A stretch of DNA of 51,641 nucleotides from Deltaproteobacteria bacterium (GTDB taxonomy: Bacteria; Bdellovibrionota_B; Oligoflexia; Oligoflexales; Bog-1112). Positions 21,288 through 24,362 of this stretch are shown piece by piece. Position 1 is the stretch's first letter, and each line of letters opens with the position of its first letter. Where the stretch lies: positions 1 to 51,641 of the forward strand of contig CANIBL010000013.1 of the NCBI GenBank assembly GCA_947466225.1, read 5' to 3'. The position numbers were made by a program, and so were the translations under genes. The notes beneath the pieces are model-generated. The model was given only the letters and a program-made list of their open reading frames with translations. It was not told the origin of the DNA and ran no database searches.

Positions 21288-21293
21288 CTGCCC

Positions 21294-22229
21294 TTACCGC
21301 GGATGTTGAAAGAACAAGCTTTCATCTTCGTACTGGGACGCAACAAAGGTAGACCGCGTGTAAATAGTACCAACAACTGCACCGGAAGGTTCGGTTGCGG
21401 TTTGCATGAGTACATCATAAAGACGCGTGCCTACTGGTACCTTCTCCATCAAGTCCACCCGAAAATCTTGAGTTGAATCAGAGGGAATTAGTCCTTGTGC
21501 CTCTGCCGTTGGGCGTAGGATTAAGACATCGTCATAAGGCAAAACCGGGGTTTCAACCATTAGGCCTGTTCGGGTCATCTGGGCCATGGGCTGAAGAGTG
21601 AGATGCGTTGCTGGGGATTTTACATTCTCAAAAAAGTAGCTCAAGATTTTTAAGATGCAAGAGGTTGGGGGTTGGATATGGTTAGAAAAAGGAAACTGGA
21701 AGAAGTTGCGATTTGTGCCCTGTCCATCGAGAGAATGCATGACTTGAATGTTGAGCGACGGTTTACCGTCGACAAGGAATTTAAGGGCGGCCCCTGGAAT
21801 AAAACTCGTATTCGTAGGGGTTGTGGCCAGCGAGAGACGGGCAACTCCCAGGGCCCCAGAGTGGAAAATTCCTGTTAATCCCAAATTTTTAACTGGGACG
21901 TATTCGATCTTAGCAGCAACCCCAGTCCGATGGATCATTTTCTTGCGGCCGGCTTTCATCTCATCTGAAGGCAAATCAAAGGTCGGAAGTAAATGTGCTG
22001 GGCATAGGTTGCTACCGAAGCTGCCCAGCTGGGCGGCTCCAATGGATGGCAAGACATCATAGGGGGTATTGATGCGGCTCCACAATTTGGTGAGTTTGGT
22101 TTTGGCAGAGAATCGTTGATAGCGTGCAGATAATGGATGTGCCGCTTGTATATTTTCACTGGCTGATAAAGTGCTCGTGAGGCTGATGGCAACGGCCAAA
22201 AGACCTAGCCGCTTTGGGGTGAGGCGCAT
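21294..22229 (-). CDS. Exported protein of unknown function, possibly a distant catalase-fold relative
   Basis: A 311-residue protein with a signal peptide (MRLTPKRLGLLAVAISLTS, cleavage near ASA) and no lipobox. The middle has a G-rich pattern (HRTGVAAKIEYV, TGIFHSGALGVARLSLA, FIPGAALKFLVDGKPSLN, NRNFFQFPFSNHI). In spacing this recalls the start of the catalase core (H-x-x-G, R-F-S, G-x-A-x-K-F), but the proximal tyrosine motif is not seen, so heme binding is unproven. Ribosome site CAGGAG; a TTCGCA-16-TATAAT promoter lies just upstream. The stop faces the zinc-ribbon gene. Treat the function as unknown. Confidence 0.6.
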   Translation of the reverse strand: MRLTPKRLGLLAVAISLTSTLSASENIQAAHPLSARYQRFSAKTKLTKLWSRINTPYDVLPSIGAAQLGSFGSNLCPAHLLPTFDLPSDEMKAGRKKMIHRTGVAAKIEYVPVKNLGLTGIFHSGALGVARLSLATTPTNTSFIPGAALKFLVDGKPSLNIQVMHSLDGQGTNRNFFQFPFSNHIQPPTSCILKILSYFFENVKSPATHLTLQPMAQMTRTGLMVETPVLPYDDVLILRPTAEAQGLIPSDSTQDFRVDLMEKVPVGTRLYDVLMQTATEPSGAVVGTIYTRSTFVASQYEDESLFFQHPR

Positions 22230-22252
22230 ACAAACTCCTGCAACTATTTGAT

Positions 22253-22280
22253 ATTATAGGGGGAGTACATACTATGCGAA
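22253..22280 (-). promoter_or_regulatory. Sigma70-type promoter for the exported protein gene
   Basis: On the minus strand TTCGCA (22280-22275) and a perfect TATAAT (22258-22253) are separated by 16 bases, ending 23 bases before the ATG at 22229. The same TTCGCA-16-TATAAT layout precedes the TPR lipoprotein gene. A TTGACA sits 12 bases further upstream but is too far from TATAAT to pair with it. Confidence 0.5.
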
Positions 22281-22307
22281 GGGGTTTGTCAAGGAAAAGG
22301 AGGCTTC

Positions 22308-22931
22308 TTACAACTCTTGCAGAGCTCCGAAATCGATCGCTTTCATTTCTTTTGTTTCGGGTGTAGCCCACATAATATTTTCCTCATGTCGATCGTTGAG
22401 TCTAAGGCCATCTGCAGCAAGGGCAGCCTCTAATTTGTTGTAAAAGTCCATCACCCGATCAAACAGTTCCCTGCTCCACTCTTCTTCTTTTGGCATCTTA
22501 TGCAGTAAAGGGAAAACAGAAATATGTTGCTCCATATCCACCGCAATCGGTAGATTGCAAAACGCAGCAGAGTCTATACATTTATTTTGAGCCAGCATGT
22601 CTTTTTGAATTGGTTCAAGGTGGTTAGATTTATATACCTTTAGAGCGAATTCTTCCTCGCTCTTTGTTGCATGATAGACCTCGCCCTCGCTACCGCCTCC
22701 AAGTCGATAGTCAATAAGATAAGTCCCTGATTGCAGTACAATTGTAACCGATTTGACTGGTTGAATCGGGTTGTTCTCACCCTCTAGCTTGAAAAAAGCA
22801 TCATGCTGTGATTGCTTGAGTTGGTAAAGTGCTTGTCTTTGTTCCTCTGTAATAGCAAATGCGGATTGCGAAGTGAATCCACTCCAACTGAGTACAAGAG
22901 AAAGTAGAAATGGGGGCATTTTTCTTATCAT
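22308..22931 (-). CDS. Signal-peptide-bearing protein-kinase-like protein
   Basis: A 207-residue protein with a clear Sec signal peptide (MIRKMPPFLLSLVLSW, cleavage after SAFA near residue 25). The mature part has a kinase-like series: glycine loop YRLGGGSEGEVYHA, the ATP lysine in FALKVYK, a catalytic loop LNDRHEENIMW that keeps the Asp and Asn of H-R-D-x-x-x-x-N, and a DFG motif in KAIDFGAL. The protein ends five residues after DFG, so the activation segment and lower C-lobe are missing; the DNA beyond the stop shows no continuation in the same frame. Start ATG at 22931 has a GGAG site. Targets are unknown. It could act in the periplasm, be exported further, or be a degenerate pseudo-enzyme. 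Confidence 0.72.
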   Translation of the reverse strand: MIRKMPPFLLSLVLSWSGFTSQSAFAITEEQRQALYQLKQSQHDAFFKLEGENNPIQPVKSVTIVLQSGTYLIDYRLGGGSEGEVYHATKSEEEFALKVYKSNHLEPIQKDMLAQNKCIDSAAFCNLPIAVDMEQHISVFPLLHKMPKEEEWSRELFDRVMDFYNKLEAALAADGLRLNDRHEENIMWATPETKEMKAIDFGALQEL

Positions 22932-23063
22932 GGCGATTCTCCAAAAATAAGTCGAATAAAGATGTGGAGCGAGAGTGGGGTAAATAAGGGTAGAAATCAA
23001 AAACTTGGGGATATTTTCATAAATTTCAGCTGGTTATGTAGAGCAAATGAATGGCAGAGCCGC

Positions 23064-24362
23064 TTACTTCCGCGGCACATTCTTGCGAAACACTTCCCAG
23101 CCTTTTAAATACGTGAAAGCGGTTACCAGCTGGTGATCTCGGCGCAGCCCTTCTGACCAGCTTTGCATGGCTTGTTGGATGTGATTTTGTGCCCCTAGGT
23201 CGCTCAAGTCCTTGGACTGAATGTGGTAGGCCAAGTCCGCTTCCTTCGTTATGCCCTTTGCCGCTAGGTCAGGCAAAGTTTTCGCGGGGACCAAAATATC
23301 AGGGGTGATGCCCAGCGCTTGGATGGAGCGATCATTGGGGGTGAAATACCGGGCAATGGTGAACTTCAGCCCAGAGCCATCAGCTAAAGATACCAGTGTT
23401 TGCACACTGCCCTTCCCAAAGGATTGGGTTCCTAGAATAAGTGCACGCCCATGATCTTGCAACGCCCCAGCTACAATCTCCGATGCACTGGCAGATCCTC
23501 CGTTCATCAACACCACAATGGGAAACCCTACGAAGGTATTTTTCTTGTGGGCAAACTCTCGTTCTACTCGATCGGGATCTCGTCCCACTGTGGAAAGAAT
23601 AAGCCCACTTTCGATGAAGAGATCGGCTACGCTCACGGCTGCCTTCAGCAGCCCCCCTGGATTGTCACGCAAATCGAGAACCAAACCTTCTAGCCGATTG
23701 CGCAGCGGTTCCAACACTGCGGGGAGGTCCACATCTGTATGTTCTTGGAAGGTATCGATCTTCACATAGGGAATCGTCGGGGAGAGAAAGTGGGTATGTA
23801 CAGAACGAACTTGGATGATTTCTCGCTTCAGCCTAAATTCCAGCGGAGCCTTCTGATTTTTGCGCTGGATTGTGAGACGCAGTATGGAGCCAGGGACGCC
23901 GCGCATCATGTCTACAGCTTGATCCGGGTCTAATTTGGTCAGCGAAATTCCCTCGATGGCAATGATTTCATCGCGGGGCTGAATGCCGGCCTTCATCGCG
24001 GGGCTGTCTTCAATTGGGGAAATAATGATGAGCTTCTTGTTTTCTTGGCTTACATTGATGCCCACTCCCCCAAACTTGCCTTGGGTGTCAATGGTCAGCT
24101 GCTCAAACTCTTTCTGTGGCAAGATTACGGTGTGAGGATCTAACTTAGCTGTCATGCCACCGATGGCATTTTCAATAAGAGACTGGGGGGCTACCTTCGC
24201 TGGATCTACGTACAGCTTGTTGAGGTAGTAGTAGGCTTGAGCAAACGTTTCCAAGTTGCGGTAATAGGCGCTGGAAGTATCTGGAGCGGGAGGAAGAGAA
24301 GAAGCGGCATGAATGGCGGGTGTGAGCCATAGGAGCACAGGAAAAAATCGGAAGTATCTCAT
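23064..24362 (-). CDS. ctpA: C-terminal processing peptidase (S41)
   Basis: A 432-residue S41 serine protease of the CtpA/Prc family, active in the periplasm on peptidoglycan hydrolases and lipoproteins in other Gram-negatives. A signal peptide (MRYFRFFPVLLWLTPAIHA) is followed by an N-terminal helical region, a PDZ domain (GKFGGVGINVS to about residue 180, with SPAMKAGIQPRDEIIAIEG) and the S41 core: LRDNPGG, MNGGSASASEIVAGAL with the catalytic Ser, and GTQSFGKGSVQ with the catalytic Lys. Complete. Its ATG overlaps the stop of the upstream TPR lipoprotein gene (ATGA); in other bacteria a TPR lipoprotein (NlpI, LbcA) is the adaptor of this protease, so the pairing is meaningful. Confidence 0.95.
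   Translation of the reverse strand: MRYFRFFPVLLWLTPAIHAASSLPPAPDTSSAYYRNLETFAQAYYYLNKLYVDPAKVAPQSLIENAIGGMTAKLDPHTVILPQKEFEQLTIDTQGKFGGVGINVSQENKKLIIISPIEDSPAMKAGIQPRDEIIAIEGISLTKLDPDQAVDMMRGVPGSILRLTIQRKNQKAPLEFRLKREIIQVRSVHTHFLSPTIPYVKIDTFQEHTDVDLPAVLEPLRNRLEGLVLDLRDNPGGLLKAAVSVADLFIESGLILSTVGRDPDRVEREFAHKKNTFVGFPIVVLMNGGSASASEIVAGALQDHGRALILGTQSFGKGSVQTLVSLADGSGLKFTIARYFTPNDRSIQALGITPDILVPAKTLPDLAAKGITKEADLAYHIQSKDLSDLGAQNHIQQAMQSWSEGLRRDHQLVTAFTYLKGWEVFRKNVPRK

What the first reader, a model, noticed from the sequence alone, without database searches (positions are those of the whole stretch)
22308..22931. Secreted minimal kinase-like protein that stops at DFG
The sequence shows a Sec signal peptide followed by a glycine-rich loop, an ALK-type lysine, a catalytic-loop Asp/Asn and a DFG motif, in that order. 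All residues needed for ATP binding and phosphotransfer are kept. However, the protein ends five residues after DFG, so the activation segment and lower lobe are missing. Exported kinases of this size are unusual in bacteria. It could be a periplasmic or effector kinase, a secreted pseudokinase, or a truncated relic. It follows ctpA on the same strand with 132 bases between.
Basis: partly seen in the sequence, partly recalled or inferred. Interest (0 to 1): 0.7.

Follow-up and report, generated by a model that had tools for sequence, protein, structure and literature searches.

The report
Exported half-kinase ending at DFG
A bacterium of a little-studied group carries an extra, apparently recently acquired gene for a secreted protein that is the ATP-binding half of a protein kinase and nothing more, one of several exported kinase-like proteins in its genome; whether it can phosphorylate anything on its own is doubtful and testable.

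Summary
In detail: on the minus strand, 22931..22308 encodes 207 residues with a Sec signal peptide, G78-x-G80-xx-G83-x-V85, ALK K98, D180/N185, and D200-F-G, ending five residues after DFG. It is a real protein-kinase homologue: 35.1 bits against a profile of 28 phylum kinases that excludes it, versus 11.9 for the best of 20,000 shuffles. An AlphaFold model built with a kinase alignment (pLDDT 73) matches protein kinases in the PDB. It is not a local frameshift: only 78 bases separate it from the next gene. No orthologue was found anywhere searched. The gene and its downstream partner sit in a junction that is at most 84 bp (some overlapping) in all seven relatives keeping both neighbours, so this is a lineage-specific insertion. 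The genome encodes at least five other kinase-domain proteins with export signals, plus type II secretion genes. Not every key residue is kept: the alpha-C Glu aligns with D111 and HRD reads L-N-D. Because SteC fragments that end slightly further past DFG are inactive, I favour an exported nucleotide-binding half-kinase that is inactive alone or partner-dependent. An active minimal kinase and a fresh relic remain open.

The parts
22308..22931 (-). Gene of the exported half-kinase, 207 aa (P0001); possible earlier TTG start at 23000
   Evidence: kinase profile 35.1 bits vs 11.9 best shuffle; Pfam Pkinase 75-202
22854..22931 (-). Signal peptide, residues 1-26 (MIRKMPPFLLSLVLSWSGFTSQSAFA|ITEE)
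   Evidence: read from sequence; heuristic flags 7 of 41 long window ORFs, this one included
22677..22700 (-). Glycine-rich loop, residues 78-85 (GGGSEGEV)
22638..22640 (-). Invariant lysine K98 (ALKVYK)
   Evidence: invariant in A1 and A4; not aligned in every row of A3
22377..22394 (-). Catalytic loop D180-R-H-E-E-N185
   Evidence: D and N invariant in A1, A3, A4
22326..22334 (-). DFG, residues 200-202; five residues follow, then stop
21294..22229 (-). Downstream partner of the inserted pair: exported 311-aa protein of unknown family, with its own promoter-like site (22280..22253, minus strand)
   Evidence: relatives in 16 of the 57 other genomes, not next to a kinase in the regions read; no Pfam or PDB match; promoter-like site
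21288..23063 (.). Inserted stretch between two conserved convergent neighbours; the junction is at most 84 bp, or overlapping, in seven relatives
23064..24362 (-). ctpA-like S41 protease, conserved neighbour upstream of the insertion
   Evidence: TIGR00225
20982..21287 (+). Small conserved ORF that directly abuts ctpA in relatives

Best explanation
A lineage-specific exported protein made of the nucleotide-binding half of the protein-kinase fold (N-lobe, helix E, catalytic loop, DFG), probably derived from the exported kinase repertoire of this bacterial family. After Sec export (and possibly release through the type II secretion system whose genes the genome carries) it probably binds nucleotide but is not an autonomous protein kinase, because the activation segment and the substrate-binding helices are absent; it would act by binding a target, by pairing with a partner or a second copy, or as a competitor of fuller kinases. 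Shown: ORF, motifs, homology, insertion, absence of a hidden C-lobe, sister exported kinases, type II genes. Inferred: folding on its own, ATP binding, export, lack of activity, role.
For: Kinase homology from glycine loop to DFG. Model from P0001 plus 21 kinase fragments: pLDDT 73.4 with strands b1-b3, helix C, b4-b5, helix E, b7-b8 in kinase order; all 50 listed PDB matches are protein kinases or kinase-like (RIO2, PRPK), E from 2.6e-05. Five further kinase-domain proteins with export signals in the same genome; compact exported relatives in other genera: L197 (232 aa), L191 (302 aa), L119 (374 aa). Insertion with low third-position GC, 0.385 against 0.45-0.56 in the other nine genes measured. 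GspC, D, E, F genes in the genome. Published precedent: SteC fragments ending 11-13 residues after the DGD Asp are inactive although such a fragment folds well enough to crystallise, while a fragment with helices F and G is active (PMC13395416); P0001 ends 7 residues after its DFG Asp.
Against: The alignment used for the model consisted of kinases, so the model is not independent proof of the fold; without it the prediction failed (pLDDT 39). D180, N185, K98 and DFG are all kept, which pure binding to a target would not require. No orthologue, so no test of selection on the short form. Export, ATP binding and inactivity are untested.
Confidence: 0.5

Rival explanations
1. A functional minimal kinase: the chain up to DFG is enough, perhaps as a dimer or with the N-terminal helix (residues 29-53) standing in for the missing lobe, and it phosphorylates targets outside the cell or in a host or prey cell.
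For: Glycine loop, K98, D180, N185 and DFG retained; other compact exported kinase-like proteins in the phylum, one ending about 40 residues after its DFG-like motif (L197); Pfam holds a 160-position kinase model, Kinase-PolyVal, that aligns with L191 up to its DG motif (weak, E 0.004); N-terminal helix and an extra strand predicted before b1.
Against: SteC fragments that end slightly later are inactive (PMC13395416); alpha-C Glu column holds Asp and HRD is LND; Kinase-PolyVal was not matched by P0001 itself at E up to 1; ATP is scarce outside the cytoplasm (general knowledge).
Confidence: 0.15
2. A relic: a longer exported kinase gene that recently lost its C-lobe by deletion and is on its way out.
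For: Orphan in one genome; the same genome holds kinase-homologous pieces in separate frames at contig C14 34572-35478, beside an intact kinase, so kinase genes do break here; low GC3.
Against: Intact ORF with signal peptide, ribosome-binding-like site and all core motifs; no remnant of the lost lobe in the 78 bases before the next gene.
Confidence: 0.3
3. Chance resemblance of an unrelated protein to kinase motifs.
For: Weak Pfam score below cut-off; failed single-sequence model.
Against: Colinear match to an independent kinase profile with E 1.6e-8 against 20,000 shuffles.
Confidence: 0.03

Closest known systems
Protein kinase domain, Pfam PF00069 (bacterial Ser/Thr kinases of the PknB kind)
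   Same: Glycine loop, K, D/N of the catalytic loop, DFG in order; profile homology
   Different: No activation segment, no APE, no helices F to I; exported; HRD reads LND; score below Pfam's cut-off
Minimal effector kinases with depleted C-lobe: SteC, OspG/NleH, HopBF1 (literature, PMC13395416, PMC9950578)
   Same: Small, reduced C-lobe, limited sequence similarity to eukaryotic kinases
   Different: Those are delivered by type III secretion and, for SteC, need helices F and G for activity; this one has a Sec signal peptide and stops before them
Kinase-PolyVal, Pfam PF18762
   Same: A short kinase model (160 positions) that, in relative L191, aligns from the glycine loop region to the DG motif
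   Different: P0001 itself did not match it; by its Pfam description it is found in polyvalent proteins, not described as exported
Exported kinase-domain proteins of the same genome and phylum (C4, C5, C24, C39 of G000; L119, L191, L197)
   Same: Signal peptide or lipoprotein signal plus kinase domain
   Different: All longer; identity to P0001 13-25% in the rows aligned

Membership tests
Protein kinase-like superfamily (PF00069) | Colinear glycine loop, invariant Lys, catalytic Asp/Asn, DFG | tested here: met
Protein kinase-like superfamily (PF00069) | Score above the curated family cut-off | tested here: not met
   17.5 bits against 31.7
Protein kinase-like superfamily (PF00069) | alpha-C Glu that pairs with the Lys; HRD motif | tested here: not met
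   D111 and L178-N179-D180 in alignment A4; the distant alignment leaves D111 uncertain
Protein kinase-like superfamily (PF00069) | C-lobe with activation segment and helices F-I | tested here: not met
   stop five residues after DFG, 78 bases to next gene
Protein kinase-like superfamily (PF00069) | Kinase fold | tested here: inconclusive
   kinase-order elements at pLDDT 73 with a kinase alignment; failed without alignment
Protein kinase-like superfamily (PF00069) | Phosphotransfer activity | not testable with these tools
   needs an assay
Minimal type III effector kinases (SteC, OspG, HopBF1) | Sequence relationship to one of them | tested here: inconclusive
   only one PDB sequence match, a generic kinase at E 0.67; effector sequences were deliberately not fetched
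Minimal type III effector kinases (SteC, OspG, HopBF1) | Delivered by type III secretion, no Sec signal | tested here: not met
   Sec-type signal peptide
Kinase-PolyVal (PF18762) | Match to the profile | tested here: not met
   absent from P0001's list at E up to 1

The most novel reading that the evidence does not exclude
A naturally occurring, exported protein in which the kinase fold up to DFG alone is a working catalytic or switching unit, the shortest form in an exported kinase arsenal of a barely studied bacterial phylum.
Probability: 0.13. Interest if true: 0.75.

Novelty: new variant of a known kind. Interest (0 to 1): 0.48.

Why it matters
It would set a lower limit for how much of a kinase can be kept and still be useful, and it points to a wider feature for which I found no description in the papers searched: many Sec- or lipoprotein-exported kinase-domain proteins in one bacterial phylum, where ATP and substrates outside the cytoplasm are a puzzle. 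Both are directly testable.

Tried and rejected
No homologue by protein search in the 58 genomes of the phylum, plasmids, phages, viral contigs and genome contigs; the collection scans need exact short peptides, so genus-level relatives could be missed. Single-sequence structure prediction was poor and its fold search meaningless. A scan with ctpA to name the organism or find a closer relative returned only Planctomycetota/Brocadiia records. A viral-contig scan with a kinase query found nothing; motif scans gave 54 stretches, many with kinase genes, that supplied the alignment. No type III effector sequence was fetched as a yardstick. Partner gene supplying the missing lobe: rejected, its relatives do not stand next to kinases in the regions read. 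Frameshift hiding a C-lobe: rejected, only 78 bases follow. Defence-system reading: PADLOC matches were weak and partial, best mad6 at E 0.0003. The relatives' loci from the genome search were not handed to structure prediction because its stated rule does not list them. Paper searches for exported kinases in this group found nothing on point.

Full report
What is there. The ORF lies on the minus strand (22931..22308, 207 aa). The mature protein after a Sec signal peptide begins near ITEE. Core motifs: G78-G-G80-S-E-G83-E-V85, A96-L-K98, D180-R-H-E-E-N185, I199-D200-F201-G202, then ALQEL and a TAA stop. A GGAG box precedes the ATG. ctpA ends 132 bases upstream; the next gene on the same strand starts 78 bases downstream and has its own promoter-like site.

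Is it a kinase homologue? Pfam Pkinase aligns residues 75-202 to positions 5-143 of 263 at E 0.003, below the curated cut-off, and PI3_PI4_kinase aligns over the catalytic loop to DFG. To test this without circularity, 28 kinase domains from this phylum were cut to the glycine-loop-to-DFG region and made into a profile without P0001: P0001 scores 35.1 bits (E 1.6e-8 for 20,001 sequences), the best of 20,000 shuffles 11.9 bits. Alignments with three and five exported or compact relatives keep the first and second loop Gly, the Val, the catalytic D and N and the DFG Asp invariant. A profile of such relatives matches 1122 distinct PDB sequences at E up to 0.01, the 60 listed being protein kinases, though that profile contains other members besides P0001.

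Fold. A single-sequence model failed (pLDDT 39). With 21 kinase fragments as alignment the model reached pLDDT 73.4, pTM 0.60, with secondary-structure elements in kinase order and an extra N-terminal helix and strand. The 50 PDB matches listed are all protein kinases or kinase-like proteins such as RIO2 and PRPK. The alignment steers the result, so this shows compatibility, not independent proof.

What is missing or changed. Nothing of the activation segment, APE or helices F to I is present, and the 78 bases that follow cannot hold them. In alignment A4 the alpha-C Glu column holds D111, the HRD triad reads L-N-D and the catalytic-loop Lys position holds H182, as in DxHxxN atypical kinases (general knowledge).

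Relatives and context. No homologue was found by sequence in 57 other genomes of the phylum or in the other collections. Synteny is telling: in the seven relatives that keep both neighbours, ctpA and a small conserved ORF converge with at most 84 bp between them or overlap; in the window 1776 bp and two genes are inserted there. The kinase gene has third-position GC 0.385 against 0.45-0.56 for the other nine genes measured. The second inserted gene belongs to a family of exported proteins seen in 16 of 57 other genomes at scattered places, not beside a kinase in the regions read.

A wider pattern. Kinase-domain proteins with Sec or lipoprotein signals recur in this family. In the window's own genome: contig C5 (682 aa lipoprotein and 381 aa), C4 (429 aa lipoprotein), C39 (445 aa), C24 (399 aa). 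In others: L119, L191, L197 and several 470-1000 aa lipoproteins. The signal detection is a heuristic that flags 7 of 41 long ORFs in the window, most of them plausible exported or membrane proteins. PF00069 matches at E up to 1e-6 number 11 in this 2.1 Mb genome and 21 in G004, against 2-14 in the other families of the order, mostly with larger genomes; a match is a region, not always a gene. The genome also holds type II secretion genes gspC, D, E and F, a possible way out of the cell; no link to this protein is shown.

How it most likely works. SteC is the best studied precedent found for a depleted C-lobe: its fragment 202-375 was crystallised, but fragments ending at 375 or 377, 11-13 residues after the Asp of its DGD motif, are inactive, and activity needs the region with helices F and G (PMC13395416). 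P0001 ends 7 residues after its DFG Asp. The parallel predicts a foldable, perhaps nucleotide-binding domain without autonomous protein-kinase activity. Retained catalytic residues in an orphan gene fit either recent origin from a fuller exported kinase or use in a complex. I put 0.5 on an exported half-kinase that is functional by binding or with a partner, 0.3 on a fresh relic, 0.15 on an active minimal kinase.

Taxon. 

Noticed in passing
21294-22229 (minus): Exported 311-aa protein, a family in 17 of 58 genomes and also inside larger exported proteins; the conserved pattern (RK.IH..G, PG.A.KFLVDG, NFF) recalled catalases to me, but no Pfam or PDB profile supports that.
   Followed up: partly
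L113 2403-3883, L114 1333-2825, L115 1289-2793, L195 526-2090: A conserved gene pair: a 233-245 aa kinase-like protein (Pkinase match stopping near DFG) directly followed by a PP2C-like phosphatase, in the window's genome and several relatives. The phosphatase label is read by eye.
   Followed up: no
G000 contig C14 34572-36786 (L155): Kinase pieces in different frames next to an intact 485-aa kinase: looks like a broken tandem copy.
   Followed up: no
L121, L122 (G005 contig C35): Four kinase-domain genes on one 40-kb contig, several with lipoprotein-like starts, on both sides of its ctpA.
   Followed up: no
L271 (G000 contig C17): Type II secretion cluster with two gspD-like and two gspC-like genes side by side.
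   Followed up: partly
L197 2145-2744: A second small exported protein of unknown family directly follows the compact exported kinase-like gene in G009.
   Followed up: no
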